Source of the DNA: Gammaproteobacteria bacterium
GTDB taxonomy: Bacteria; Pseudomonadota; Gammaproteobacteria; Enterobacterales; Alteromonadaceae
Length of the DNA stretch: 64,000 nucleotides
Assembly: GCA_017302255.1 (NCBI GenBank)
Contig: JAFLDV010000013.1
Coordinates: 1-64,000 of the forward strand
Direction of reading: 5' to 3'
In this document: in pieces, positions 928-15,011 of the stretch
Layout of the letters: the number at the start of each line of letters is the position of its first letter
Numbering within the stretch: the first letter of the stretch is position 1
Made by a program: the position numbers and the translations under genes
The notes under the pieces: generated by a model
Databases searched by the model: none
The model's input: the letters and a program-made list of their open reading frames with translations, nothing else
Told to the model about the DNA's origin: nothing

Positions 928-3900
928 TTAATAAGCTTGAAACACTGGTTTGTTGGCTTCCAAAGAACTTAGCCGACTACGTGCCGCGCTCATTTCAGCC
1001 TCATAATTGTTTATGTCTGACTGTAAGCTGTTGATCCGGTTATTGGCGTTATTGACGTCGTTCTGGCAACTTTCTACTTGGTAATTTAACTGATTCATCC
1101 GATCTTGCGCTTGTGAGCGACAGTTAGAAATACAGTATTGGTCAGTTTGCATCTCATAATAAGTGCCATTAAAGACGTTTTGGGTACAGCCCATTTCACA
1201 TGCCGCAGAGTTCAAACCTTCAGCCACAGCACCTAAAGTACTCATGCTGCAGTCTTGATTAGCATTACCTTGTTCATTGGATATTTCATTCTGCCGGCTG
1301 TAAATAGCATTTTGCCACTGCGAAATTTGGCCATTTAAGGTATTTACCTCGCTTTGCCATTGCTGCAAGGTGGCATTAAAGCCATCGTAATGCTGTTTGG
1401 CGGCATTAGTTGCAGTAGCATAACTATTGGTGGCGGCGTTATAACGGGCGGCGGCATCAGCCCAACTACCCGCGGCATTTAATTTTTCAGCTTCGCCAAA
1501 CAGCGCATCAGCTTCTGCACCACGGCCTTGGGTAGCAAATCCACCGCTGACCCAATCGCCCCAGTTTTTACGGACACCGGCGACTTGGTTTATCGCGGTT
1601 AATACTTGCTGCGCGTCCGCATTAAGCTTTTGATAACCGCGGTCTAAATCAGCAAATGATTTGGCTGCGCCCACCACTTCACCCGCTTTAAAATCGGCTT
1701 CAGCTTTGGCAAATTGACCAGCGTACTGCTCGTTTAGTTTGTGTTTCAGGCCACGTTGACTGCGAAAGGCTTCCCAAGCGGTTTTGGCTTTACTGGCGCG
1801 AGCTCTAAATTCACCGGCGTTACGCGAGGCATTTTCTAGCTCGCTGTATTGCTCAAACAACGCTTGATACTCAACACCTGCTGGCACTAAGTCACCACTG
1901 CCCCATTGTTGCTCGGCTTTATCAAACCGTGCGCCATATTCATCAGTGAACTTGGTTTGCAACCCTTTGCTCTTGGCATAGGCCAACCAGCTAGCTTTCG
2001 CTTTAGTTGCTTTTGGTTTGAATTCAGCGCCAGCAATTAAGGATTTGGTTGCAGCGGCATAACCCACCGCAACTTTTTCCAGCAATGGTGCTGCGTCGGC
2101 AAAGGCTTCTTTACTCAAAAACTCAGTCGCAGCAGTGAGATCTTTTTCCAGCAATTCTGTCGCTGGAATCGATTTGATATCGTATTTCGGTGCGGTGCTT
2201 TGCCAAATACTGCGCTCATGCGCGCTCGCAGCTTTGTAACGAGCGACATTTTCGGAAGCATCGGCTTGGCGCAACAAGTCTTCATAACCCGCAACGGCTT
2301 CTTGGTAGACTGCCAAACTTTCTTTGTAGGCTTTAGTTTGCATCAAATCTTTGGCGTGGGTGGCTCGGCCGTTGATTTCACCACGTCGATTGCTATCAAT
2401 CAGATAGGTGGTCAACAACTCCTCTTGCGCTTCTAACACCCGCTGCAGTTCTTGTTGTTCTGCCAGCTTTTGCTCAATGGCTTTTTTGTCCTTCGCACTG
2501 GCGCGCCCCAGTTCTGACTCGGTTTGCCGTGCTTCAAATTTAGTTTCTTGCAGGCGAGTTTTCACCGCATCACGCGCGCCTTCGAGGCGGTTATTCAAGG
2601 TTTTAAGCTTGCCTTCTGCGGTCGCTGCATCGGCTTTAAAGCCGTTAATTTCTTCTTGCGAATAAGGCCGGATTTGGTCCCAAAGCGGGATGAGATTGCC
2701 GGTTAAGTGCAAGCCACCTAAACCCAGCGCAACTACCACACTCGCCGCAAGCACCAACTTGGTGGTGTTGCCGCTGCCTGCTTGTGCAGATTTGCGATTA
2801 CTTTTTGCTTTGGGTTTGGAATTGCCAAAACCAAATCCTGATTTTTTCTTTAAAAACTCTTCTTGCGCTTCTTTGATGCTGGCAAAACGCTCATCCGGAT
2901 TGCCCGATAGCATCTGATCAACCACGTCCGACAAATGCTTACTGACGTCTTTGTTGATCTTGTTCAAACTATCAACACGGCCCGCTGGCACATGACCGCT
3001 GATCATTTCATATAACATCACGCCAACCGCATATTGGTCCGCGCGACCGTCGATATCGGTGCGACCTTTTAATTGCTCTGGCGCCATGTAATACGCGGTG
3101 CCCATGGCGGCGCCGGTTTTGGTCATTTGACTAGAGTTCATGACACGCGCGATACCAAAATCCATGATTTTGATTTTGCCTTCGCCCGTAATCCAGATAT
3201 TTTCAGGCTTGATATCGCGATGCACAGTGTACTCATGGGCATGCTGCAAGCCTTCGCACACATCACGCGCAATGGCTAAGGCTTCATCCACGCTCATGCT
3301 TTGCTTGGTTAATTCCAAGTTTTCCAGGTATTGCCGTAGGTTCTGGCCTTCCAACAACTCCATGGTGATGAAATACAGATCGCCATCATTTTGCACATCA
3401 AAGACATTAACGATATTTGGATGACTCAGTTGGCTGGAAATACGTGCTTCGTCGAGAAACCGCTCTTTGGCAGCCGTCGAGCTTAATAAAGCAGGCAATA
3501 ACACTTTGACGGCAATACTTTGGTCGCGGTTTTTATCAAAGGCGCGATAGACCGCGCCCATGCCACCGATGCCGATACATTCTTCAATGCGAAAGCGGCC
3601 AGCCAGCACATCACCAGCTTTAAACTGCAAGGCTGCTTGGTTTTCTTGGGCAAATCCGGCGCCAAACTGCGGTAAGTCAGCAAGTTTGGTTTGGCTGAGC
3701 GGGCTCGATGCTGGCGCCACTGGCGCTGGTTTGATCGGCGCTGCCGCATTCACTTGTTCGGCGATGACTTGTTCGGCAATGACAGGCTCTTGGGTAAAAT
3801 TGCTACCAGTGGTCAAGGTCGAAATTACCGGTTCAACACGTTCCGCATCGTCAGCCACTGCCGACGGTTCGGCAAAACTTGGATTTGCTAGCAAACTAAG

Positions 3901-4074
3901 GATCTGCTGCATTTCTGCTTGCACCGTTAGGTACTTATTGCGCAGCTCTGGTGTCGGCGCTTTTTCGGCCATCGCCACAACTTTATCAAGTTTTTGCTGT
4001 GCGGCTTGCTGTAAATCGTCTTTGCTAACTGTGTTGTCTAAGCCTAATTTGGCGGCAATTTCGCTGAATTCCAT
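928..4074 (-). CDS. Membrane-anchored Ser/Thr protein kinase with coiled-coil, Cys-rich C-terminus
   Basis: A PknB-type (Hanks) kinase of 1048 residues. Visible motifs are the glycine loop GIGGMGAVY (about 164), the AVKV lysine, catalytic HRDIKPEN (about 285), DFG (about 303) and APE (about 329), so the kinase should be active. The first 60 residues form a short helical region resembling a J-like fold without HPD. A low-complexity Ala/Pro/Val linker follows. A single membrane helix (about 436-458) separates the kinase from roughly 590 residues of mostly helical coiled coil, presumably periplasmic, ending in a segment with six Cys. The start at 4074 is chosen because TTGGAG lies 8 bases upstream; an in-frame TTG at 4086 is the SD itself. 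It is divergent from the pseudo-dynamin/Hsp70/PP2C operon at 4459-8680, whose phosphatase is the obvious antagonist. Substrates unknown. Confidence 0.9.
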   Translation of the reverse strand: MEFSEIAAKLGLDNTVSKDDLQQAAQQKLDKVVAMAEKAPTPELRNKYLTVQAEMQQILSLLANPSFAEPSAVADDAERVEPVISTLTTGSNFTQEPVIAEQVIAEQVNAAAPIKPAPVAPASSPLSQTKLADLPQFGAGFAQENQAALQFKAGDVLAGRFRIEECIGIGGMGAVYRAFDKNRDQSIAVKVLLPALLSSTAAKERFLDEARISSQLSHPNIVNVFDVQNDGDLYFITMELLEGQNLRQYLENLELTKQSMSVDEALAIARDVCEGLQHAHEYTVHRDIKPENIWITGEGKIKIMDFGIARVMNSSQMTKTGAAMGTAYYMAPEQLKGRTDIDGRADQYAVGVMLYEMISGHVPAGRVDSLNKINKDVSKHLSDVVDQMLSGNPDERFASIKEAQEEFLKKKSGFGFGNSKPKAKSNRKSAQAGSGNTTKLVLAASVVVALGLGGLHLTGNLIPLWDQIRPYSQEEINGFKADAATAEGKLKTLNNRLEGARDAVKTRLQETKFEARQTESELGRASAKDKKAIEQKLAEQQELQRVLEAQEELLTTYLIDSNRRGEINGRATHAKDLMQTKAYKESLAVYQEAVAGYEDLLRQADASENVARYKAASAHERSIWQSTAPKYDIKSIPATELLEKDLTAATEFLSKEAFADAAPLLEKVAVGYAAATKSLIAGAEFKPKATKAKASWLAYAKSKGLQTKFTDEYGARFDKAEQQWGSGDLVPAGVEYQALFEQYSELENASRNAGEFRARASKAKTAWEAFRSQRGLKHKLNEQYAGQFAKAEADFKAGEVVGAAKSFADLDRGYQKLNADAQQVLTAINQVAGVRKNWGDWVSGGFATQGRGAEADALFGEAEKLNAAGSWADAAARYNAATNSYATATNAAKQHYDGFNATLQQWQSEVNTLNGQISQWQNAIYSRQNEISNEQGNANQDCSMSTLGAVAEGLNSAACEMGCTQNVFNGTYYEMQTDQYCISNCRSQAQDRMNQLNYQVESCQNDVNNANNRINSLQSDINNYEAEMSAARSRLSSLEANKPVFQAY

Positions 4075-4378
4075 GATGAACTCCAAGAGTGTGACCGAAC
4101 GGACTCATGCCGTTTTGGTTATTGTTTTTGCTTTGAGCTTTGTTATAGCAAATGCAGTGGTTAAAACTGAAGCGAAAATCAGCAACTTAATGGCTATTTC
4201 GCAACATTACCCAAAGAAGAAACACCGAGTGCCATAGAAAGTTAATCCAGCGTGATCTCGGGGTGAATGTAAAGTGATGTAATCACTGCAGCTAAATGCA
4301 ACATGTGGCTCGGCGAAAATTAACTACAAAATTTCCGCGAAAAACCACAGGAAAAGCAGATTGCGTTCCGCTTGCCCC

Positions 4379-4408
4379 TTGTCGGACGGGCATGCTTGAA
4401 CCTATGAT
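4379..4408 (+). promoter_or_regulatory. Candidate sigma-70 promoter for the 4459-8680 operon
   Basis: The 384-bp gap between the divergent kinase and the 4459 gene holds TTGTCG (4379-4384), an 18-base spacer and TATGAT (4403-4408), about 50 bp before the ATG. I see no clear operator or hairpin elsewhere in this gap. Confidence 0.35.
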
Positions 4409-4458
4409 GAAGTTTGAGTTCGGTTGCCGTTAACGGCTGGTTTTCCTAAGGTTTTGGT

Positions 4459-6360
4459 ATGCAAGCAATAGAACAACTGAGTCGCGAATTTCGCGCCAGC
4501 ATCAGCACCAGTTTGGACATCTGCCAATTGTTGGAGCGTGGGCAAGCAAATACCCCGCTTGCGGACTTATTCCAGCAATTACAAAAGAACCTTGGCAATA
4601 AACCGCTTGGCATCACCTTAATCGGCTTAACTCCTGAAACCCGTAACGCCGCCTTAAAATGGTTGTATGGCCATAATTTTGCGGTGTTTTCTCTAGAAGT
4701 GAGTCAACAGATTGGTCTGTTAGAAGTCCAATTAAAAGACCAAGGTTATTCCTTAGAAAAAAGTACTGGTGAGCGTTTGGAATTCGATCACTGGGATGAT
4801 TTTATGGGCGCTGTGCATGATGCCAAGCTGTTTGCCGCACTGCCGCCAAACAATGCCGATAAAGGCGCGCTCAAAGTTGGCACGCAAAGCGCAACCACCG
4901 CCAGAAACTTACAAGTACTGATCCCTGAAAGCTGCGAATTTATTGCCAAGTCACCGGCGTTATTATCCAGACTTTTGGCCGAATCTAATTTAGTGATGGT
5001 AGCTGGTAGCCCAGATCAGCAATTAAGTGGCACCGACCAAGCTGTGCTGGCTCAGCTGCTTGATGATATGGTGGCTTGTTGGCCGTTGTTGCCGGTTGAT
5101 GAATTAAATCCAGACACCCGTTTTCCGGAAAAAGGCTGGTGGACTCAGCTAAAAAGCGCCGTCACTTTATCGCCAACTTTATTAACCACCCATGTGGATG
5201 CGGCTATTCCTACCCCACTGGCTGAGGTCAGTAACGACTTGCGCTTGGGTCTGCAATTTGCACTACAAAGCAAACGCTTGCATTCAATTACTGAAGCAAT
5301 GACCGAACGTTACGAGCAAGAAGTTCGGCAATTGCAAAGCCGAAAAAGTCGCGAAAGCCGCCGTACCGATGGCCCAACAACAACGCTTGACTACAGCTTT
5401 TGGAGCCAGATTAAAACTGAACTCGGCGATGAAATCCAAGCGCTGCAAAAAGACTTACAAGAATCCAGTCGTCGCCGAGAAGTGCCAACCGGCACCACCC
5501 ATGTTTCACTAAAGCAGCTGATAGATTCTATCGACTACGATGGCTTAGATCGCGAAGACCAGTACAAGATGATTAAGTTATCGCTGTCGCGGAAAACCCA
5601 AGATGATTTGACCGGTTTTATCCAACAGCAGAGTAAACAGCAGTTACGCCAAGATATTGAATCCATTCAGCAACGGATGCAGGCGCTACTGGATCGCATC
5701 AGTGAAAAATTGCACAAACAAACCGGCGCGTTAGTCGGCTGGCAACTGCCAAAGTTACCAGACTCGCAGATTTGGCAAGATATGCAGGAACTGATTAGCC
5801 TGGAGCTGCGCTACCAAGGCGAATTACCCAAACGCGGCTTTATCGATAGGCTTAGCGAAGGCCGTAAATCGGTGATGGTAGTGATGATGTCGGTGATGTT
5901 GTTAGGCTACGTCGGCATGGATTTGCGCAGCTCGCCTTGGCTCAGTTATTTGGTGGTGCCGATGTTCTTTGGCGCCATTGCTTATAGTTTTATCGGCTTT
6001 CGCAAAGACGAAGAATATCGGTTAGACAAAGAGTTAACGCGGGTTCGCGAAGAATTATTGTCAGCTGGCCGTCGCACAATTTCCGATCTGAATCGGCTCA
6101 AGCAAACCAAGTTAAACGAATTTACCGATGGCTTAAAGAAACAATGGCAACAACAACTGGAACAGTTTGGCCGCGAGCAACAAAGCAAGCAACAAGCTGA
6201 GCAAGAGCAAAGCGCGAGCAAAGCCAAGGCGCGAATTGGCGCTATTGATAGTCAATTAAGCGAACTTAACAGCATCAACAGCCAAGTGCAAAAAGTGACG
6301 AGAGACGTGCAAAGTCTGCTAGAAAAAACTCGTCAATTACTCAGCCAACTGAACAAATAA
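4459..6360 (+). CDS. Dynamin-like membrane protein with degenerate P-loop
   Basis: A 633-residue protein with a dynamin-like layout: an N-terminal alpha/beta domain (about 1-250), long coiled coils (about 270-450), a paired hydrophobic segment (about 475-515: VMVVMMSVMLLGYVG and YLVVPMFFGAIAYSF) and a C-terminal Gln/Lys-rich coiled coil (about 530-633). Where dynamin GTPases have GxxxxGKS the sequence reads IGLTPETRNAALKWLYG, so the Walker A Lys is missing and GTP binding is doubtful. It is the first gene of a three-gene run (14 bp to Hsp70, then 15 bp to PP2C). Inferred role: a membrane-bound scaffold or remodelling partner of the Hsp70 and kinase. The dynamin relation is a fold-level guess from architecture, not sequence identity. 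Confidence 0.6.
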   Translation: MQAIEQLSREFRASISTSLDICQLLERGQANTPLADLFQQLQKNLGNKPLGITLIGLTPETRNAALKWLYGHNFAVFSLEVSQQIGLLEVQLKDQGYSLEKSTGERLEFDHWDDFMGAVHDAKLFAALPPNNADKGALKVGTQSATTARNLQVLIPESCEFIAKSPALLSRLLAESNLVMVAGSPDQQLSGTDQAVLAQLLDDMVACWPLLPVDELNPDTRFPEKGWWTQLKSAVTLSPTLLTTHVDAAIPTPLAEVSNDLRLGLQFALQSKRLHSITEAMTERYEQEVRQLQSRKSRESRRTDGPTTTLDYSFWSQIKTELGDEIQALQKDLQESSRRREVPTGTTHVSLKQLIDSIDYDGLDREDQYKMIKLSLSRKTQDDLTGFIQQQSKQQLRQDIESIQQRMQALLDRISEKLHKQTGALVGWQLPKLPDSQIWQDMQELISLELRYQGELPKRGFIDRLSEGRKSVMVVMMSVMLLGYVGMDLRSSPWLSYLVVPMFFGAIAYSFIGFRKDEEYRLDKELTRVREELLSAGRRTISDLNRLKQTKLNEFTDGLKKQWQQQLEQFGREQQSKQQAEQEQSASKAKARIGAIDSQLSELNSINSQVQKVTRDVQSLLEKTRQLLSQLNK

Positions 6361-6373
6361 GGCAGGATCGCGG

Positions 6374-7885
6374 ATGTTGTATTTAGGCATCGATCTGGGC
6401 ACCACTTACTCGCTGGTCGCTTATATGAACGATCATGGTCAGCCGACGTTGTTTCCGGATTATCACGACGCCAACGAGTTTCGCACGCCATCAGTAGTGC
6501 ATATTGGCGCTGAAGGTTGTTATGTCGGTGCTACCCTCGAAGGCATTTTGGACGACGAACCGGAACTATCTCAAGCTCGCTTTTTTAAATTGCAGATGGG
6601 AAAACCCGCTGCGGTTTATCAAGACCATTTGCAGCGCACTTGGTGGCCACAAGCCTTGTCGGCTTTGGTCTTAAAGAAAATGCTGCACGATGTCGAAGCC
6701 TTTGCCCACGATGAAATTGGCGGCGCTTTAATTACAGTCCCAGCCAATTTTAATGATGCGCAGCGTCGCGCCACGCGAGAAGCCGCGCAAATGGCCGGCC
6801 TCACCCACGTTAAACTGATGGATGAACCGGTCGCGGCGGCAACTTTTTATGGCCTTAATCGCAAAGGCGCCGAGCAAACCTTGTTTGTGTATGACTTAGG
6901 CGGCGGCACTTTTGATGCCACTGTGCTACAAGCGGGTGACTCCGGCTTATATTCACTGGCAACCGAAGGCAGTAATCAACACGGCGGCATTCATGTCGAT
7001 GCGATGATTATGGACTTTATTCTCGATGAATATCAGCGCCAGCATGGCATTCGGCCGAACGACGAAACTAGCTTAATGATTTTGCGCCGGTTTGCGCATG
7101 ACACCAAACTGGCTTTGGTGAAACCTGGCAAAACTCGCGTTGGCAAAACATTTTTGCTCGGCGGCAAATCCATCGAGTTTGTGTTGACCCGTGAACTGTT
7201 TCATCAAATGATTGAACAATTTATTGATGACACTATTGCGGTCTGCCAGCGCTGCTTGGACGCTGCTGGGCTTGATTGGTCATTTGTCGATACCATTTTG
7301 CTGACTGGTGGTTCGTCGTTGCTGCCTCTGGTGCCGGAAAAGCTTGCGCGCATTAGCGGTCGTCCGGTTGATCAATTGGTTTGCAAACAACCGCATCAAG
7401 CGGTGGCTTATGGCGCAGCCATCTTAGCCGCGCAACAATTTGGTGGCGGTGGCGCAGGGCCAAAACTACAATCCATTTGCGCTTATGATCTCGGGATCCG
7501 GGTAATGGGTAAAGATCAACAGCCGACAGTTAAAGTGCTAGTGGCGAAAAACACGCCGGTGCCTGCATCGGCTCGAATGACCTTTTACACCAACCGTGCC
7601 GACCAAACCCGCTTAATTATTGAAGCGGTGCAACAACGCGATACCTCGACCGGCCTCGAGGAAAACAGTCTGGGCTATTTTGCTTTTGCCATCGACAATC
7701 CACGGGCCAACTATCCACTTGAGATTGAACTGGCCTACGATTTAGAGGGATTGGTGGTGATCACTGCTCGCGATCCAGAAACCGGCCGGCAAATTCGCCA
7801 ATTAATGGACGCACAAACCGAAGCAATGGACAACGCTTTGCTTGCCCAACAACCTTGGGTTGAAGCAATGCGGATTAACCCCTAA
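6374..7885 (+). CDS. Hsp70-family chaperone-like ATPase, short form
   Basis: A 503-residue DnaK/HscC-like protein. The actin-fold ATPase motifs are intact: LGIDLGTTYS (4-13, phosphate 1), DEPVAAATFYG (about 150), VYDLGGGTFD (about 172, phosphate 2) and LLTGGSSLLPLV (about 309, adenosine). After the ATPase domain (about 1-360) there is a beta-type substrate-binding-like region of about 130 residues. The helical lid of DnaK (usual length about 640) is absent, so client handling probably differs. It lies between the pseudo-dynamin and the PP2C gene in a tight operon. There is no J-protein or GrpE in the window; the weakly J-like N-terminus of the kinase is the only candidate partner. It is not the housekeeping DnaK, judging by length and context. 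Confidence 0.88.
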   Translation: MLYLGIDLGTTYSLVAYMNDHGQPTLFPDYHDANEFRTPSVVHIGAEGCYVGATLEGILDDEPELSQARFFKLQMGKPAAVYQDHLQRTWWPQALSALVLKKMLHDVEAFAHDEIGGALITVPANFNDAQRRATREAAQMAGLTHVKLMDEPVAAATFYGLNRKGAEQTLFVYDLGGGTFDATVLQAGDSGLYSLATEGSNQHGGIHVDAMIMDFILDEYQRQHGIRPNDETSLMILRRFAHDTKLALVKPGKTRVGKTFLLGGKSIEFVLTRELFHQMIEQFIDDTIAVCQRCLDAAGLDWSFVDTILLTGGSSLLPLVPEKLARISGRPVDQLVCKQPHQAVAYGAAILAAQQFGGGGAGPKLQSICAYDLGIRVMGKDQQPTVKVLVAKNTPVPASARMTFYTNRADQTRLIIEAVQQRDTSTGLEENSLGYFAFAIDNPRANYPLEIELAYDLEGLVVITARDPETGRQIRQLMDAQTEAMDNALLAQQPWVEAMRINP

Positions 7886-7900
7886 CTAGCAGGGCCTTGC

Positions 7901-8680
7901 ATGTCCAAACAGCAGAAAGCACAGATACAATTTACCAGCTTTAGCCATAGCGGTTGGCAGCGCAACAATAACGAAGATGCGTTGTTAGTTGATGCCAAGC
8001 TTGGTATTTTTTTGCTGGCTGATGGCATGGGCGGTCACGCCGGGGGGGAAGTCGCCAGTCAAATGGCTTGTGAACAAGTCCACATCGCCTTGAGTCAACA
8101 ACTTGATATCACAGAAGCCGTGGCCCGCGCCCATCAACAGATCCTGACACTTGGCCAGCAACAACCTGAGCTACATGGACTTGGCACCACTTTAGTCGCA
8201 GCACAAATTTGCGCTGACCAGCTACAACTTAGCTGGGTTGGTGATAGTCGCATTTATAGATATCGAAACGGTAAACTGCAGCAGCTCAGTGAAGATCATT
8301 CGTTTGTACAACAACTAATAAGCCGTGGCGTGCTTACACCAGCAGAAGCCGATGAACATCCACAGCGGCATTTGCTGCAGCAAGCGCTTGGCCAATTGTC
8401 AGGAAAAACCCCAAAGCCAAGCTTTTGTCACGAAGATTTTCAGCAAGATGATTTGTACTTGTTATGCAGCGATGGTGTGTCTGACGTCTTGTCTGAAGCT
8501 GCGCTGGTTACCTGTTTAAACCATCAGAAACCGCTGACGCAAGACGACTTGGAACTGCTAGCGCAGCGCTTACTGGCAGCGGTGCTGGCGACTGATGCGC
8601 CCGATAACGCGAGTGGCATTTTACTGCAAATCCTTTGCGGCAATAAGCCGCCACTGTGGCGGCGTTGGTTGGGACGCTGA
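7901..8680 (+). CDS. PP2C-family Ser/Thr phosphatase
   Basis: A 259-residue PPM/PP2C (Stp1/PrpC-like) metal-dependent phosphatase. Motifs in order are NNNEDALLVD (metal-binding Asp, about 22-33), LADGMGGHAGGEVAS (about 38-54), GLGTTLVAA, WVGDSRIYRYRNG, EDHSFVQQLI, LCSDGVSDVL and PDNASGILLQI. The metal-coordinating Asp residues are all present and the length is normal for the bacterial catalytic domain. No membrane segment, so it is cytoplasmic. As third gene of the operon opposite the kinase at 928-4074, it is the likely partner that reverses that kinase's phosphorylation. Confidence 0.93.
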   Translation: MSKQQKAQIQFTSFSHSGWQRNNNEDALLVDAKLGIFLLADGMGGHAGGEVASQMACEQVHIALSQQLDITEAVARAHQQILTLGQQQPELHGLGTTLVAAQICADQLQLSWVGDSRIYRYRNGKLQQLSEDHSFVQQLISRGVLTPAEADEHPQRHLLQQALGQLSGKTPKPSFCHEDFQQDDLYLLCSDGVSDVLSEAALVTCLNHQKPLTQDDLELLAQRLLAAVLATDAPDNASGILLQILCGNKPPLWRRWLGR

Positions 8681-8681
8681 T

Positions 8682-8704
8682 GCGCAAATCGACGATATTT
8701 GCGC
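8682..8704. terminator. Hairpin between convergent PP2C and coiled-coil genes
   Basis: GCGCAAAT (8682-8689) pairs with ATTTGCGC (8697-8704) around a 7-base loop, in the 40-bp gap between two convergent stop codons. The U-tract is poor on both strands, so its strength is uncertain. Confidence 0.4.
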
Positions 8705-8720
8705 TGGCGCTAGTTTAACT

Positions 8721-10397
8721 TTAGCCGCATTTTGACGCCGCTTTCGCCGCAGAACTTGCCGCTTCGCTGGCACTGGCTCGGGCTTCACGCGCTAAATCAT
8801 GAATTTCACTTAACAACTTCGAAGCACTGTCGTGAAAACCTTCAACTTGTTTCGCGCCATTCTCAGCATCACCGGCTGCAGTTTTCGCCGCTTCGGCATG
8901 TTTTTGCGCGTTTTCAACTTCTTTCCAAGCCGTAGTTTGGGCGACCTTAATATCGCCTAAAATATCGTTTGCGGTTTTTAGTACGGTTTCAAGCTGAGAT
9001 AGCAGTGTTTTCGCATGTTCAGCGGCCTGATCCATTGCCGCCCGCGCTTGGTCACGCAACACTTCGGTGGCGGTTTTCGCAGCTTCTGCACCTTGTTGCG
9101 CGGAATGGGTTTGTGACAATGACGCTTGAGCGTTACTCGCAGCAGTGGCGGCACTGTCTGCAGCACTATGTGCTTGCATAGCTGCTGAGCGCGCCTCCCC
9201 CGCCATGGCCTCCGCATTATTCGCTGAACTTTGGGCGTTACCTGCTGAAGCCTGTGCAGCACCGGCAGCACTTTGCGCAGTGCCAGCCGAACCTTGGGCA
9301 ACGTTGGCGGAACCTTGCGCTTGGCTTGCAGATCCTGCCGCCATATTCGATGAAGCCGTCGCTTCACTGGCTTCTTGTTGGGCGGTTGCCGAAAATTGCA
9401 CCGCTTCTTGCGCTTCTTTTTGCGCTAATGCCGCAGATGCTTTGGCCTCTTCGGCTTCTTTATCTGCTAATTTCGAGGCTTGCTCAGCTTCTTCAGCTTC
9501 TTTCGCCGCTTGTTGCTGCGCTTTTTGCGCTTCGGCTTCCAGTTGTTTGGCGTGCTCGCTCGCTCTTTGCGCTTCTGCTTGTGCTTGTTCCGTGGCTCTT
9601 TGCGCCGCTTCGGCCGCTTGTTGCGCAGCTTCAGCTTCTTGTTCTGACTGCTCAGCTTTTTTCGAAGCTTCTTCAGCTTCTTTCGCTTCTTGCTCTGCGG
9701 TGTTCGCTTGTTGTTTGGCTAATTCGGCAGCGGCTCGTGCACTATCCGATTGTTGATTGGCATCTTGCGCCGAATTAGTCGCCTGACTTAATTGCTGTTG
9801 CGCTTCTTGCGCAGATTGCCCGGCTTGTTGCGCTTGCTGAGACGCATCTTGCGCAGAATTTGTCGCGACATTGGCCTGTTGACTGGCTTCTTGCGCCTGC
9901 TGCGAAGCAGTTGATGCAGCAGAGCTGGCCATTGATAACTGTTGTTCAGCACTTTGTGCTGCTTGCTGTGCAGTTGACGCTTGTTGCTCCGCAACGGAAC
10001 TTGCTTGGGTGGCTTCTTGCGCCTCACGTTGCGCTTCCGCTGAGGCCGATTGCGCTTGTTGATTAAAATTCTGAGCAGAGCTGGCATCAGCCTGAACTTG
10101 CTGTACATAGTTCTCGCTTTGCTGTGCCGCAGTTTGCGCTTGTTGACTGGCTTGACTAGCATCGGCAGCAGCTGTGCTAGCTTGCTGCGAACTTTGACTG
10201 GCTTGTGCTGTTGCTTCTTGCGCTTGCTGCGCTTGAGTCCCTGCCTGTTGCGCAGCGGTTTGCGCTTGCTCGGCATCAGCTTGAGCTTTTAACTTTTCTT
10301 GTTCGGCAGCAGCAGCGGCTTGTTGAGCTCGTTCGGCTTCGGCACGCGCAGCAGCCAGTTGCGCTTGGAGTTGGGATAAGGTGTCATCAATAGCCAT
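8721..10397 (-). CDS. Ala/Gln-rich coiled-coil protein
   Basis: A 558-residue protein made almost wholly of Ala, Gln, Glu and Ser in degenerate repeats such as SQQAQEASQQAN and AEQEAKEAEEASKKAEQ. The central 400 residues have no Pro, Trp or Cys, so a very long alpha-helical coiled-coil rod is expected. Composition shifts from Ala/Gln/Ser (about 1-210) to Ala/Glu/Lys (about 210-330) to Ala/Ser/Gly (about 370-430), and the last 130 residues are less repetitive. There is no signal peptide or membrane helix. The ATG at 10397 is preceded by GAGAGA; an upstream in-frame ATG at 10448 lacks an SD. It converges on the Hsp70/PP2C operon and is included in that block by proximity. It might be a filament-like or phosphorylatable scaffold. 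Function unknown. Confidence 0.75.
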   Translation of the reverse strand: MAIDDTLSQLQAQLAAARAEAERAQQAAAAAEQEKLKAQADAEQAQTAAQQAGTQAQQAQEATAQASQSSQQASTAAADASQASQQAQTAAQQSENYVQQVQADASSAQNFNQQAQSASAEAQREAQEATQASSVAEQQASTAQQAAQSAEQQLSMASSAASTASQQAQEASQQANVATNSAQDASQQAQQAGQSAQEAQQQLSQATNSAQDANQQSDSARAAAELAKQQANTAEQEAKEAEEASKKAEQSEQEAEAAQQAAEAAQRATEQAQAEAQRASEHAKQLEAEAQKAQQQAAKEAEEAEQASKLADKEAEEAKASAALAQKEAQEAVQFSATAQQEASEATASSNMAAGSASQAQGSANVAQGSAGTAQSAAGAAQASAGNAQSSANNAEAMAGEARSAAMQAHSAADSAATAASNAQASLSQTHSAQQGAEAAKTATEVLRDQARAAMDQAAEHAKTLLSQLETVLKTANDILGDIKVAQTTAWKEVENAQKHAEAAKTAAGDAENGAKQVEGFHDSASKLLSEIHDLAREARASASEAASSAAKAASKCG

Positions 10398-10736: not shown

Positions 10737-12053
10737 ATGAAACAAGTTATTGCTGCGACCGCAGCTTTATTGTTGGTCTCGCAGACCGCACAAGCAGATA
10801 GTTATGTTTACATCACCAACTCAACCGCCGATGAGGTGACTGTCAGTGTCAGGCATTTTGGCAGTAGCACATTGCTAACGCCAGGCAGTCAATGGCGACA
10901 AGAAGCCAATACCATAGCGCCTTACGCCACCAAAAGAGTGTTGGCGTTTAACCGTAATGAAGGCGTGAAACGCAATCAAACTTACCAGTTTGAAACTGCA
11001 GTCACGGCCAACGGTTCGACTATGGTTGCGATGCAAAAAATGGTCGGCAACTGGGTTGGCAGCAGCATACAACATAGTGCGCGGGCAGCTGATTTTCAGG
11101 CGCCTTGGCGCAGCGACCGTCAGATTTATCGACACAGCACCCAGTACCAATTAAAACCATCAACCGTTGGTTTTGCCGCAAGTTTTACCGGCGGATACGA
11201 TGATTTTTATTACACGGTGAGCAATAACACCCAAACCGAAGCCTTGGCACCAGCAAATACTTTAAAAGTGCTCACATACAACATCTATGCATTGCCATTA
11301 GTTGCTAGCGACATCTCTGCACGTTTGCAGGAGTTGCCAGCACATTTGCGCGGATACGATGCAATTATGCTGCAAGAAGCATTTTCTTCTGACTCGCCAG
11401 CACTGCTCCGCGCTCTGGCTAATGAATATCCTTATCAAACTACAATTTTGCGCAAACCACTGTCAGGCGTGAATGTCTACAACGGCGGTGTGGCTATTGT
11501 CAGTCGTTATCCTATTGGTCGCACAGAACAATTCGTCTATCCAGAATGTACTGGCACCGATTGTTTTGCCGACAAAGGCTTTGTGTATGCTGAAATCATT
11601 AAACAAGGCAAAGCGTATCAAGTAGTTGCAACGCATACCGCCAGTTTTGACACCGACGCAGCACGCCAATTACGTCAAGCGCAATTTCGCTTGATGAAAC
11701 AATTTGTCGAGCAAAAAGCCTTCGCCCGCACTGACACCGTGTTATATGGCGGCGACTTTAACGTCAACAAACTGAAATTCCCCGATGACTACGCGGCCAT
11801 GCAACAAAACCTAAACGCCAAGGTGCCAATGTCGACTGGATACACCGCATCAACCTTTGATCCACGAGTTAACAGCTACGCTGCGAGTTACGATACTGTC
11901 GAATACCTTGATTATGTTGTGGTAAGTAACGCTCATCGGCAGCCGTCTTTTAGCAAAAATGATGTGCGGGTACCACGAACCACCGTTGATTCTTTATGGA
12001 AACGGTGGGATTTATCCGACCATTTCCCGGTCATGGCTGAAATTCGCGAGTAA
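10737..12053 (+). CDS. Secreted neutral sphingomyelinase (sphingomyelin phosphodiesterase, DNase I fold)
   Basis: 438 residues with a signal peptide cleaved after about residue 20 (SQTAQA-D). An N-terminal beta-rich region (about 21-170) precedes the endonuclease/exonuclease/phosphatase domain (about 178-438). That domain shows LTYNIYALP, IMLQEAF (metal-binding Glu), NGGVAIVSRYPI, FADKGFVYAEI, VATHTASFD, YGGDFNVN (catalytic Asp/Asn), YLDYVVVS and LSDHFPVMAEI (catalytic Asp-His). This pattern matches bacterial hemolytic sphingomyelinases (EC 3.1.4.12), which hydrolyse sphingomyelin to ceramide and phosphocholine. The start has a good SD (GAGGA). It forms a two-gene operon with the chaperone-like gene 5 bp downstream. 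Activity on other phospholipids is possible; the sequence does not settle it. Confidence 0.85.
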   Translation: MKQVIAATAALLLVSQTAQADSYVYITNSTADEVTVSVRHFGSSTLLTPGSQWRQEANTIAPYATKRVLAFNRNEGVKRNQTYQFETAVTANGSTMVAMQKMVGNWVGSSIQHSARAADFQAPWRSDRQIYRHSTQYQLKPSTVGFAASFTGGYDDFYYTVSNNTQTEALAPANTLKVLTYNIYALPLVASDISARLQELPAHLRGYDAIMLQEAFSSDSPALLRALANEYPYQTTILRKPLSGVNVYNGGVAIVSRYPIGRTEQFVYPECTGTDCFADKGFVYAEIIKQGKAYQVVATHTASFDTDAARQLRQAQFRLMKQFVEQKAFARTDTVLYGGDFNVNKLKFPDDYAAMQQNLNAKVPMSTGYTASTFDPRVNSYAASYDTVEYLDYVVVSNAHRQPSFSKNDVRVPRTTVDSLWKRWDLSDHFPVMAEIRE

Positions 12054-12058
12054 CCGTC

Positions 12059-13039
12059 ATGAACAATCGCAAGATCGGCATATTCATATTGCTAATCTGC
12101 TGTTTCGGTTGGTGGTGGTTTGCTGCCACCACCAATTTGCCGGCGGCAGCACAACCATTTGAGAAAATTGGCGAGCATAAAAGCACAGCTAACGCGGTTA
12201 AACCCAAGCAATCCAAAGCGCAGCCAAACCAAGATGCTCTTAGCGAAGCTGCGCACTTTACTGAAGAACGGCGGCTGCAAGCGCTGACCAAACTCGCTGA
12301 TGAATACCGTCAACTTCGTGCGCAAACTCCAGGTAACTTACAGGCCTGGCTAGAGCAACTTTGGCGCCTTTGCCAAGCTGAAAACACCGAGCGCTGTGAA
12401 CAGCGATTGGCCGATTTAGCACAAGGGTTAACCGCTGAGGAAATGCTTGAGCTCAAAAAGTTACTGGCGGCTTATCAGCAATATCAACAGCAACTTGGCC
12501 AATTGGTCATGTCTACCGAATTGTCACCACAGCAACGTTTTGCCGAAATAAAGGCGCTACGCGAACAAGTGTTCGGCGAGCAGACGGAGACTATGTTTGG
12601 ACAAGAACATCAATTTGCCGAGCATCAATTTAAACTTGATGATTTTCAGCAAATCGAGGCCGCAGGTTTATCAGTGGAGCAACGACTGGCCAAACTAAAC
12701 CAATTGCAGCAACAAAGTGGCATCCAGAGCGAAGGTTTATTAGGACCGGATCAAGCCTACCAGCAAGCGTTACGACTGCTCAGTGATTTGCCGCAAGCGG
12801 AACAAGAGCAGTGGCAAGATAAACTGCGGCAACAGTATTTTGGCGATCAAGCGCAACAAGTGAAAGCATATGAGCACCAACAACGGCAACATCAGCAAAA
12901 AATGCTGGCATATCAAGAAGCTTTGCAGCAATTGGAAGCGCGATTCGCGGCATTAAAATCTCAGCTCGAGCCGCAAACATGGCAAGCACAATACGCGGAG
13001 GCCTTACTGCAACTTCGACTAGCCTACTTCCCGAATTAA
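12059..13039 (+). CDS. Lipase-chaperone (LifO)-like membrane-anchored protein
   Basis: 326 residues with an N-terminal membrane anchor (about 6-25), an Ala/Pro/Lys linker and then almost pure Gln/Leu-rich helix. The segment ALREQVFGEQTETMFGQEH followed by a helix beginning LSVEQRLAKLNQL matches the extended helical half of lipase-specific foldases (LifO/LimK), which wrap around and fold a secreted lipase in the periplasm. The first mini-domain signature of the family, RxxFDYxLSxxGE, is not found, so it is a shortened or divergent form. No lipase gene is nearby. The gene starts 5 bp after the sphingomyelinase stop, so the likely client is that sphingomyelinase. The client assignment is inference from gene order. 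Confidence 0.7.
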   Translation: MNNRKIGIFILLICCFGWWWFAATTNLPAAAQPFEKIGEHKSTANAVKPKQSKAQPNQDALSEAAHFTEERRLQALTKLADEYRQLRAQTPGNLQAWLEQLWRLCQAENTERCEQRLADLAQGLTAEEMLELKKLLAAYQQYQQQLGQLVMSTELSPQQRFAEIKALREQVFGEQTETMFGQEHQFAEHQFKLDDFQQIEAAGLSVEQRLAKLNQLQQQSGIQSEGLLGPDQAYQQALRLLSDLPQAEQEQWQDKLRQQYFGDQAQQVKAYEHQQRQHQQKMLAYQEALQQLEARFAALKSQLEPQTWQAQYAEALLQLRLAYFPN

Positions 13040-13106
13040 CACGGTTGGGGCCAAGCTTTACAGTTTGTAGATATTTAGCGGATTTGATTTAGCACTCAAC
13101 AAGGCG

Positions 13107-13138
13107 CAAAAAATAAGGAGCTGCGGTGGCAGCTCCTT
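13107..13138 (-). terminator. Terminator of the DUF3718 gene
   Basis: AAGGAGCTGC (13115-13124) and GCAGCTCCTT (13129-13138) form a perfect 10-bp stem with a 4-base loop. Read on the minus strand it is followed by ATTTTTTG, a proper U-tract, and it starts 15 bp after the stop of the minus-strand gene. Confidence 0.8.
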
Positions 13139-13152
13139 GAACAGGAAACTAG

Positions 13153-13467
13153 TTATTCAGCTAAAGCCGCAATAATTGCGTCTTTTTTCTCTGAACCCAG
13201 ATATTGAGCGACCCGCGTGAAACCGTATTGTTCAGCAAATTCCGCGATTGGCATTTCATTGCAACGTACTGCGTTGCGCACAACTGACAAGCGCTCGCCT
13301 TTTGCTTGCAGCATCGTTTGGAGTGTCACAACCTGATCACTGGTTACGGCCACACACAACTTAGTCTCGAACGACTCGTCGGTGCCTACAAACTTATATT
13401 GCTCTGCCTGCGCACTCATTGCGCTTACTGCGAAGACCCCTAACATCACTGACATTAACGTTTTCAT
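13153..13467 (-). CDS. DUF3718 family small periplasmic protein
   Basis: 104 residues with a clear signal peptide (cleavage near SAQA-E, residue 21). The mature part has two Cys (LCVAVTSD and VRCNEMPIAEF), and the C-terminal FAEQYGF pattern is typical of DUF3718 proteins of Alteromonadales. Function is unknown. The two Cys may form a disulfide in the periplasm. AAGGAG lies 9 bases before the ATG. It is a single-gene unit on the minus strand with its own terminator, between the lipase-chaperone-like gene and the M35 protease, and shows no operon link to either. Confidence 0.75.
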   Translation of the reverse strand: MKTLMSVMLGVFAVSAMSAQAEQYKFVGTDESFETKLCVAVTSDQVVTLQTMLQAKGERLSVVRNAVRCNEMPIAEFAEQYGFTRVAQYLGSEKKDAIIAALAE

Positions 13468-13907
13468 AGTACCTGCTCCTTAGCCAAGTTAACTTGTTTG
13501 GCGGGATTAGAATGCAGGCATTTGATGACCGTGACTTGACTAGTCCGTGGCAATCTCGGGAACTTTTGATGAAATGGCCGTCATAAAGTGTCTTGAGAAT
13601 TTCATATTGGCCGAAGCTAGCGAGCAAAACACTCAAGTTTGTATCCGTTTTAGATAATTTAACCGTTCACACAGCAAATCCCTAAACGCAACATCTGATA
13701 ATTATTTGATAAAGTTTTGATATTTCATATTTACCCTTGAGCAAACTCTAATTTACCCGCTAACTATTAGTTCGTTTGAAATACGCGACTTGTAATGGGT
13801 GACATATGGATTGTTCGGCGCATGCGTCGACAGCACTAGCCCCCGCTAACTCGAGTTTCAGGCGAACAAAACCATAACAGCAATAATAACTCCATTCAGG
13901 AACATTC
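13468..13907. other. Intergenic region upstream of the M35 protease
   Basis: 440 bp between divergent genes. The stretch at 13690-13760 is AT-rich (a TTGATA-like element followed by TATTTA at about 16 bases) and could be a promoter, but it lies some 150 bp from the protease ATG. A few short open frames exist without ribosome sites, and none is convincing. CAGGAAC at about 13897 is the SD of the protease gene. Confidence 0.35.
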
Positions 13908-15011
13908 ATGAAAAAAACAATTATTTCAGCCGCTTTGCTGGTCGCAGGTATTTGTAGCGGACAAGCATACGCCAAAGGCATTCAAGTCGAGTTGTCACTT
14001 CCACAAACCACTTTTGCCGCTAGCAGCGATGTTAACGTGCAAGTGACGTACAAAAACACCGGACATAAAGCAGAGAAAATCCTTAAATGGTACACACCTG
14101 AAGGTTCGGTAAAAGAAGACTTATTTGATATTTCAGTCAACGGGGTTGATGCACCGTACACTGGCATGCATATCAAACGGGCTGCACCAACTAGCCGTGA
14201 CTATATGGTATTAACCCCAGGTCAAGAGGTTAGCTACAACGTCGAACTGACTGCTTTATATGACCTGCCTGCTTCAGGTAACTATCAGATCCAATACCAT
14301 GTCGAAACATTGGCTCTGCACGATATCCCAACCAATTTAACCAAAGCGCAAGAGCAAGCGTTAAAACAAAGTTTCGTTGGTGAAGAACTGCCAAGCTTGC
14401 AGTCTGATGCAGTATTTGCCCAAATTGAAGTCGACAGCAAAATGCGTGTGGATGCACAACCGCCAACGTTTCAAGCTTTAGCCGGTTCAGTATCTTATGC
14501 GGCAAACTGCAGCAGCAGCCGTCGCACGACTATTGCAACTGCGATGACGTCAGCCAAAACTTATGCCTCAAATGCTGCCAGCTATTTAACTAACTATGCT
14601 TCAGCTTCACGGGCAAATTCTGTACGTTATAAAACTTGGTTTGGCAGTTACACCAGCACACGCTGGACAACTGTGAATAACAACTTCAACAAGATAAGCA
14701 GTGCGTTACAAAACCAAGCGGTGCAATTTGACTGCGGTTGTACCGACTCTTACTTCGCGTACGTTTACCCAAATCAACCATACAAAATCTACTTATGCAG
14801 CGCTTTCTGGTCAGCACCTAACACTGGCACAGATTCAAAAGCTGGCACTATCGTTCACGAAACCAGCCACTTTACCGTAGTAGCTGCAACTGACGACATC
14901 GCTTATGGCCAAACTGCTGCGAAAAACCTCGCGAAAAGCAGCCCTTCACAAGCGATTAAAAATGCCGATAGCCATGAGTATTTTGCTGAGAACACTCCAG
15001 CACAAAACTAG
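13908..15011 (+). CDS. Secreted M35-family (deuterolysin/AsaP1-like) zinc metalloprotease
   Basis: 367 residues with a signal peptide (about 1-22, ending QAYA-K). An N-terminal beta-sandwich propeptide-like domain (about 23-170) precedes the catalytic domain (about 200-367). The aspzincin pattern is present: HETSH (HExxH) followed by TDDIAYG, whose Asp is the third zinc ligand, as in fungal deuterolysins and the Aeromonas toxin AsaP1. Conserved Cys (NCSSS, DCGC and LCSAF) fit the family's disulfides. It is a lone gene followed by a strong terminator. It is probably exported as a zymogen and matures by self-cleavage, by analogy with AsaP1. Confidence 0.88.
   Translation: MKKTIISAALLVAGICSGQAYAKGIQVELSLPQTTFAASSDVNVQVTYKNTGHKAEKILKWYTPEGSVKEDLFDISVNGVDAPYTGMHIKRAAPTSRDYMVLTPGQEVSYNVELTALYDLPASGNYQIQYHVETLALHDIPTNLTKAQEQALKQSFVGEELPSLQSDAVFAQIEVDSKMRVDAQPPTFQALAGSVSYAANCSSSRRTTIATAMTSAKTYASNAASYLTNYASASRANSVRYKTWFGSYTSTRWTTVNNNFNKISSALQNQAVQFDCGCTDSYFAYVYPNQPYKIYLCSAFWSAPNTGTDSKAGTIVHETSHFTVVAATDDIAYGQTAAKNLAKSSPSQAIKNADSHEYFAENTPAQN

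What the first reader, a model, noticed from the sequence alone, without database searches (positions are those of the whole stretch)
928..10397. Kinase / pseudo-dynamin / Hsp70 / PP2C / coiled-coil module
A membrane Ser/Thr kinase with a coiled-coil, Cys-rich presumed periplasmic region faces an operon of a dynamin-like protein without a Walker Lys, a lidless Hsp70 and a PP2C phosphatase, with a 558-residue Ala/Gln coiled-coil protein next door. Each family is known, but I know of no described system with this combination. A testable reading is a phospho-controlled chaperone/membrane-remodelling machine. SrfB/SrfC-type loci (actin-fold ATPase plus dynamin-like protein) are a possible distant parallel.
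Basis: partly seen in the sequence, partly recalled or inferred. Interest (0 to 1): 0.8.

Follow-up and report, generated by a model that had tools for sequence, protein, structure and literature searches.

The report
Kinase, chaperone and coiled-coil gene module
Five bacterial genes, for a membrane-spanning kinase, a cut-down chaperone, a phosphatase, a long coiled-coil rod and a membrane protein of unknown fold, are inherited together across unrelated bacteria, and the kinase seems to carry a relative of the domain that normally calls chaperones into action.

Summary
The five genes are there as described and form a real module. Seven sampled genomes carry the 4459-6360 protein; within about 30 kb of it lie a module kinase in 7, the lidless Hsp70 in 6, the coiled-coil protein in 6 and the PP2C in 4. 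The window's own genome also holds a partial second copy at a contig edge. Identities of the module proteins rise and fall together (Hsp70 against 4459-6360 protein: r 0.97, 15 pairs) but not with DnaK (-0.34 to -0.01, 6 pairs each), so the set is inherited jointly and passed between lineages. New here: 10 of 12 module kinases begin with a domain that looks related to J-domains, the partners of Hsp70, but lacks the HPD motif. Each single match is weak; together they are well above controls. The Hsp70 keeps its main ATP-site motifs but has lost lid and linker. The 'pseudo-dynamin' has no Walker A motif in any homologue seen, and its kinship with dynamins could not be shown. Best reading: a sensor kinase that places a dedicated Hsp70 beside a coiled-coil/membrane scaffold and remodels it, reset by PP2C. 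Docking, substrates, signal and purpose are inferred or open.

The parts
928..4074 (-). Ser/Thr kinase, from its ATG (a TTG at 4086 is a possible earlier start); J-like N-terminus, kinase domain, one hydrophobic segment, long C-terminal part
3868..4074 (-). J-like N-terminal domain without HPD (69 aa)
2881..3591 (-). Protein kinase domain (Pfam stretch)
   Evidence: catalytic motifs
2701..2757 (-). Hydrophobic segment, probable transmembrane helix
   Evidence: Kyte-Doolittle
1066..1251 (-). Cys-rich stretch of the C-terminal, presumably periplasmic part (six Cys)
   Evidence: location inferred
4459..6360 (+). 633 aa protein of no known family, no Walker A; first gene of the operon
5869..5997 (+). 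Two hydrophobic segments of the 633 aa protein, behind the conserved KRG...RLSEGR stretch
6374..7885 (+). Lidless Hsp70 without the VLLL-type linker
7901..8680 (+). PP2C phosphatase
8721..10397 (-). Ala/Gln-rich coiled-coil protein, 558 aa

Best explanation
A horizontally exchanged signalling module at the inner membrane. The kinase senses something in the periplasm through a variable C-terminal part (a Cys-rich coil in the window, an FGE-sulfatase-type domain in several relatives). In the cytoplasm its kinase domain phosphorylates module partners, most likely the Ser/Thr-rich coiled-coil rod or the membrane protein, and its J-like N-terminus docks the module's own Hsp70 next to them. The Hsp70, with ATPase and beta substrate-binding parts but no lid, remodels or takes apart the coiled-coil/membrane assembly; PP2C resets it. 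Shown here: the gene set, its joint inheritance, the domain anatomy, absence of HPD, lid, linker and Walker A. Well supported but not proven: J-domain kinship. Inferred: docking, substrates, remodelling, periplasmic sensing.
For: Gene set in relatives: G066 5 of 5 kinds in about 11.4 kb; Simiduia 5 of 5 in about 24 kb; G1238 5 of 5 in about 16 kb; G1128 4 of 5; G1277 4 of 5, its kinase without catalytic motifs; G1094 4 of 5 over three contigs. Co-divergence: Hsp70 with 633 aa protein r 0.97 (15 pairs), Hsp70 with PP2C 0.96, 633 aa with PP2C 0.92, kinase with PP2C 0.95 (6 pairs each), Hsp70 with kinase 0.74, 633 aa with kinase 0.71 (10 pairs each); with DnaK -0.34 to -0.01 (6 pairs each). Module Hsp70 at 857-953 bits in 4 of the 9 genomes, every other Hsp70 match there at most 263; none in the 4 congeners tested. 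J-like domain. Kinase motifs in 11 of 12 and one hydrophobic segment in 10 of 12. Two G066 kinases 99-100% identical over the first 1500 nt, then divergent, as if the sensor end had been exchanged.
Against: No interaction, phosphorylation or phenotype data. Both G066 kinases lack the J-like domain although G066 has the Hsp70. Single J-domain matches are weak: best E 0.12, where four WD40-type repeat constructs include the three best E-values; 0.46, with no match at E 0.001 and several non-J folds close behind; no DnaJ match by Pfam in 8 of 8 N-termini. Without HPD the domain should not stimulate an Hsp70 ATPase in the usual way. The Hsp70 position of DnaK R167 is K (4), S (G066) or E (G1277), which does not follow presence of the J-like domain. 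PP2C is not adjacent in G1128 and G1277. G1094 shows no module Hsp70 (85% complete). The correlations rest on few, non-independent pairs, with one kinase picked of four (Simiduia) and of two (G066).
Confidence: 0.5

Rival explanations
1. A conflict (anti-phage or anti-competitor) system: the kinases are sensors with exchangeable ends, the Hsp70 sets a threshold, and the coil and membrane proteins act on the envelope of the attacked cell.
For: Patchy occurrence and joint transfer; kinase copies with diverging ends; FGE-type domains, Hsp70, lidless Hsp70, DnaJ and kinase/PP2C are themes of published conflict systems (PMC7159879, section 29); PADLOC kinase models of PD-T4-6 match (1.8e-74), but such models match protein kinases broadly (my judgement).
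Against: No nuclease, toxin or other effector was recognised among the five proteins. The defining GAP1 and GTPase parts of the published systems were not seen. No match on viral contigs for the Hsp70 or on plasmids for the 633 aa protein.
Confidence: 0.25
2. An envelope-stress or wall-homeostasis pathway, in which the kinases report on the periplasm and the coil/membrane proteins support the envelope.
For: Lipoprotein genes near the module in relatives: LpoB (7.2e-20) and a TPR lipoprotein upstream in G1277, an LPP20-type one in Simiduia; single hydrophobic segment in 10 of 12 kinases.
Against: These lipoprotein genes differ between loci and none was recognised beside the window module; patchy occurrence fits poorly with homeostasis.
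Confidence: 0.2
3. A loose neighbourhood of generic signalling and chaperone genes without joint function.
For: PP2C is not adjacent in 2 of 7 genomes and gene order and strand vary.
Against: Recurrence in other families and parallel divergence that ignores the DnaK relationships; a specialised Hsp70 missing from 4 of 4 congeners.
Confidence: 0.05

Closest known systems
GAP1-N2 GTPase-centred conflict systems (Kaur et al. 2020, PMC7159879; passages and section 29 seen)
   Same: Gene sets that join a GTPase with Hsp70, a lidless Hsp70 and a DnaJ domain, or with kinase plus PP2C; FGS domains as variable parts; placement at the membrane.
   Different: That section calls the Hsp70 and the kinase/PP2C themes non-overlapping; [quoted passage not shown] No GTPase was recognised here; GAP1 was not tested with a profile.
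GAK/auxilin with Hsc70 (PMC12146748; passages seen)
   Same: One protein joins a Ser/Thr kinase and a J domain and brings Hsp70 to a protein lattice at a membrane.
   Different: Eukaryotic; C-terminal J domain with HPD; clathrin; no transmembrane sensor (recalled). A likeness of plan, not kinship.
Bacterial eukaryote-like kinase/PP2C pairs (PknB/Stp type)
   Same: Kinase domain, single hydrophobic segment, C-terminal sensor part, partner PP2C; NCBIfam best matches PknB_PASTA_kin and Stp1_PP2C_phos.
   Different: Both below the curated cut-offs (266.1 of 450 and 190.7 of 230 bits); no PASTA match by Pfam; extra J-like domain and a dedicated Hsp70.
SrfABC operon (search listing only)
   Different: No such family is listed for the window proteins.

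Membership tests
J-domain proteins (Hsp40) | Three-helix J fold | tested here: inconclusive
   AlphaFold model with helices 3-9, 18-37, 42-63, pLDDT 87.7; the four best Foldseek matches are J-domains, TM by query 0.53-0.61, but E 0.46-0.82 and none of 229 matches at E 0.001
J-domain proteins (Hsp40) | Sequence kinship to J-domains | tested here: inconclusive
   Of 25 PDB sequences returned 17 are named DnaJ or Hsp40 and two more I take as such, best of them E 0.12; hhalign 23.75, reached by 0 of 200 shuffles and 0 of 83 windows of other module proteins; no Pfam DnaJ match in 8 of 8 N-termini
J-domain proteins (Hsp40) | HPD motif | tested here: not met
   Absent in 10 of 10 aligned; Ala39-Pro40 invariant in that loop
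Hsp70 | ATP-site motifs: DLGTT, Glu of (D/E)EPVAAA, D(L/F)GGGTFD | tested here: met
   6 of 6 module Hsp70s; Pfam 2e-76 for the window
Hsp70 | Catalytic Lys (DnaK K70, recalled) | tested here: inconclusive
   A Lys lies one alignment column away in 6 of 6, beside a deletion
Hsp70 | VLLL-type linker and helical lid | tested here: not met
   6 of 6 are 498-505 aa, end after the beta substrate-binding part and lack the linker
Dynamin superfamily | Walker A GxxxxGK(S/T) | tested here: not met
   Absent in 7 of 7 homologues that have the N-terminal part
Dynamin superfamily | Detectable sequence or structural kinship | tested here: inconclusive
PP2C phosphatases | PP2C domain with DGxGG and GDSR motifs | tested here: met
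   Pfam 5.2e-15; motifs invariant in 3 of 3 aligned
GAP1-N2 systems (Kaur et al.) | GTPase component | tested here: not met
   No GTPase family at E up to 1 in the five proteins; no Walker A in the 633 aa family
GAP1-N2 systems (Kaur et al.) | GAP1 protein | not tested
   No GAP1 profile was run by name; no family was found for the 633 aa and coil proteins
SrfABC | SrfB/SrfC family match | tested here: not met
   None listed by Pfam at E up to 1 or NCBIfam at E up to 0.1; that the libraries hold them is recalled

The most novel reading that the evidence does not exclude
A bacterial counterpart in plan, not in descent, of GAK/auxilin-Hsc70: a transmembrane sensor kinase carries its own degenerate J-domain that recruits a dedicated, lidless Hsp70 to a module-encoded coiled-coil coat or rod anchored by a membrane protein that no longer binds nucleotide, so that a periplasmic signal gates assembly or disassembly of a cytoskeleton-like structure, with PP2C as the reset.
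Probability: 0.22. Interest if true: 0.9.

Novelty: new variant of a known kind. Interest (0 to 1): 0.62.

Why it matters
If the docking model holds, a bacterial Ser/Thr kinase would itself recruit its own Hsp70, and it becomes testable whether J-domains that have lost HPD can still place Hsp70s. The set is compact, mobile and comes with its natural partners, so an Hsp70 without lid and without the usual linker can be studied in context. I found no description of the combination in the listings of nine searches of open PMC text (long result lists were seen only in part); subscription papers and preprints were not searched.

Tried and rejected
Dynamin kinship of the 4459-6360 protein: PDB profile searches, AlphaFold with two rows (pLDDT 41.9, so no fold search was run on it), hhalign against six proteins with Dynamin_N matches fetched: not significant. 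In one search my script lost four of the six; one search repeats it with all six, and there a reversed control (24.49) beats the real score (20.53). In one search, after dropping the two most divergent homologues (G066, G1277), 6 of 100 shuffles reach the score.

Weak hits looked at and dropped: G818 (a gene that looks like a substrate-binding protein), G945 (a TraB-like coiled coil), G1417 (a coiled-coil OmpA-like protein); names by eye. They are not among the seven genomes.

Plasmids: no match for the 633 aa protein; 262 records match the Hsp70, all below 60% identity. Viral contigs: none for the Hsp70. Promoter-like sites are near the chance level (7 found, mean 5.1 in shuffles). Diversity-generating retroelements were not tested.

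Limits: the genome search draws are overlapping samples, and in the larger draws only up to three candidates per genome were scored, so divergent copies can be missed. The window kinase row starts one residue late with M in place of E; one search has it right. The G1238 kinase N-terminus was read from just behind an in-frame stop, so its first helix is uncertain. FGE domains were scanned by Pfam in 6 of 11 relative kinases only.
Full report
What is there. On the left of the window a kinase gene (928-4086, -) stands divergent to a tight three-gene operon (4459-6360, 6374-7885, 7901-8680, all +, gaps of 13 and 15 nt); a coiled-coil gene (8721-10397, -) converges on it. Pfam recognises a protein kinase, an Hsp70 and a PP2C; the 633 aa and coil proteins have only matches at E 0.21 or worse, none in NCBIfam, and in PADLOC and PHROGs only weak ones for the 633 aa protein (best E 0.027) and none for the coil.

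It is a module. Searches with the 633 aa protein or alignments of it gave real homologues in 2 of 147 genomes of the family, 1 of 369 of the class, 1 of 398 of the phylum, 3 of 345 of the order, 2 of 120 of Simiduia's family, 2 of 40 of G1128's family and 1 of 390 of Simiduia's order. These counts include the window's own genome or the genome taken as centre and leave out three false hits (G818, G945, G1417; looked at). The draws overlap, and in the larger ones only up to three candidates per genome were scored. A scan of the species-genome collection (84,980 genomes) with the single protein, which reaches close relatives only, gave Simiduia aestuariiviva. In all, seven genomes carry it: the window's, G066, G1128, G1094, G1157 (Simiduia), G1238 and G1277.

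Neighbourhoods. G066 has coil, PP2C, kinase, 633 aa homologue, Hsp70 and a second kinase in a row. Simiduia has all five kinds within about 24 kb, with four kinases. G1238 has all five within about 16 kb. G1128 has the 633 aa homologue, kinase, coil and Hsp70, and no PP2C in the stretches read; its best PP2C match lies some 230 kb away. G1277 has Hsp70, coil, 633 aa homologue and a kinase-like gene in one direction, no adjacent PP2C. G1094, an 85% complete draft, has a 633 aa homologue broken over two contig ends, the kinase beside its 3' part, and coil plus PP2C together on a third contig; no module Hsp70 was found. Within about 30 kb of the 633 aa gene the kinase is thus found in 7 of 7, the Hsp70 in 6, the coil in 6 and the PP2C in 4. 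The window's own genome has a second, partial set at the edge of contig 17: the 3' part of a 633 aa homologue, a kinase and two coil genes; I saw no Hsp70 or PP2C among the ORFs of the first 31.9 kb of that contig.

Inherited together, across lineages. A profile of the module Hsp70 separates it cleanly: 857-953 bits in the window's genome, G066, G1128 and Simiduia, at most 263 for every other match in the nine genomes searched, and no module copy in four congeners. Pairwise identities move together: Hsp70 with 633 aa protein r 0.97 over 15 pairs; Hsp70 with PP2C 0.96, 633 aa with PP2C 0.92, kinase with PP2C 0.95, six pairs each; Hsp70 with kinase 0.74 and 633 aa with kinase 0.71, ten pairs each; with DnaK -0.34 to -0.01, six pairs each. 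The window and Simiduia module Hsp70s are 81% identical, their DnaKs 75%. Joint horizontal transfer would give this. The pairs are few and not independent, and one kinase was picked of four in Simiduia and of two in G066.

The kinase. Of twelve module kinases eleven keep glycine loop, HRD and DFG, and the G1277 one has none of them; ten show one hydrophobic segment behind the kinase domain at the cut-off used, the two of G066 do not. What follows varies: of six relatives scanned by Pfam three have an FGE-sulfatase domain (Simiduia K2, G1128, G1277) and three have none (G066 K1 and K2, G1238); the window has none; the other five were not scanned. The two G066 kinases are 99-100% identical over 1500 nt and then diverge.

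A J-domain relative. Ten of twelve module kinases begin with a conserved stretch of about 66 residues (not the two of G066; in G1238 it begins behind an in-frame stop). For the window it is predicted as three helices, pLDDT 87.7. Foldseek's four best PDB matches are J-domains, at E 0.46-0.82; none of 229 matches reaches E 0.001, and other helical proteins follow closely. A profile of the ten against all PDB sequences returns 25, of which 17 are named DnaJ or Hsp40 and two more I take as such; the three best E-values belong to WD40-type repeat constructs, and the best J-domain has E 0.12. Against nine J-domains from these genomes hhalign gives 23.75 over 58 columns, reached by none of 200 column shuffles (maximum 14.99) and none of 83 windows from the 633 aa and Hsp70 alignments (maximum 12.66) (a first trial with 12 controls, agrees). 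Pfam finds no DnaJ in eight N-termini. HPD is missing in all ten; the loop has an invariant Ala-Pro. I read this as a J-domain that has lost its key motif.

The Hsp70. All six keep DLGTT, the Glu of the EPVAAA motif and GGGTFD, end after the beta substrate-binding part, and lack the VLLL-type linker seen in DnaK and HscA; a Lys lies one alignment column from DnaK's K70 (residue numbers recalled). The position of DnaK R167, known for its contact with HPD (recalled), is K in four, S in G066 and E in G1277. Kinase and Hsp70 have thus both left the standard J/Hsp70 scheme, which would fit docking without classical ATPase stimulation; the pattern across genomes is too thin to call co-evolution.

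The 633 aa protein. None of seven homologues with an N-terminal part has a Walker A motif. A conserved stretch ending in RLSEGR precedes two hydrophobic segments. Descent from dynamins is open: one comparison aligns 199 columns in a fitting register, but 6 of 100 shuffles score as well; others fail, and the structure model is unusable.

The coil. Of nine coil proteins eight show a 3.5-residue period above all 200 shuffles; that of G1094 (0.89) does not (maximum 1.38). As one straight helix 558 residues would span about 80 nm (1.5 angstrom per residue, recalled).

How it may work. The claim with most support is that the set acts together; next comes the kinase/Hsp70 link. Phosphorylation targets, remodelling and the signal are inference. 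G1277, with a kinase that lacks catalytic motifs and no adjacent PP2C, suggests that the scaffold and Hsp70 part can persist without phosphorylation by this kinase.

Compared with what is known. The nearest published theme is the GTPase-centred conflict systems of Kaur et al. (PMC7159879; passages, section 29), in which Hsp70, a lidless Hsp70 and DnaJ, or a kinase with PP2C, join a GTPase. No GTPase was recognised here, and GAP1 was not tested with a profile. GAK (PMC12146748, passages) offers a likeness of plan: kinase and J domain in one protein that recruits Hsp70 to a membrane coat. The listings of nine full-text searches showed no description of this combination.

Noticed in passing
L007:1-7341 (own genome, contig 17): A second, partial module at a contig edge: 3' part of a 633 aa homologue, a kinase with an FGE-like end (by eye) and two neighbouring coil genes.
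   Followed up: partly
L008:5906-8548 and 11996-14554: Two kinases on either side of the 633 aa and Hsp70 genes, 99-100% identical for 1500 nt and then divergent: looks like recent duplication or conversion with exchange of the sensor end.
   Followed up: partly
L008:1061-2466: ORFs that look like a recombinase and a transposase (by eye) upstream of the G066 module.
   Followed up: no
L048:10794-13241: Kinase-like protein without catalytic motifs but with J-like and FGE domains, in a genome without an adjacent PP2C.
   Followed up: partly
L048:5365-8925: 1186 aa coil protein with a long run of near-identical short repeats.
   Followed up: no
L042:4857-8269 and L047:15455-18997: Between module genes of Simiduia and of G1238: a gene pair that looks like a sigma factor with a regulator, and one that looks like a transglutaminase-type protein (by eye); the five of these six that were scanned have no Pfam match at E 0.01.
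   Followed up: partly
window 17953-38356: TonB-dependent receptors beside two tryptophan-halogenase family proteins and a GH97 glycosidase: looks like a sugar-uptake region, not part of the module.
   Followed up: no
window 10737-15011: Next to the module, genes with an Exo_endo_phos domain, a weak lipase-chaperone match and an M35-type peptidase.
   Followed up: no
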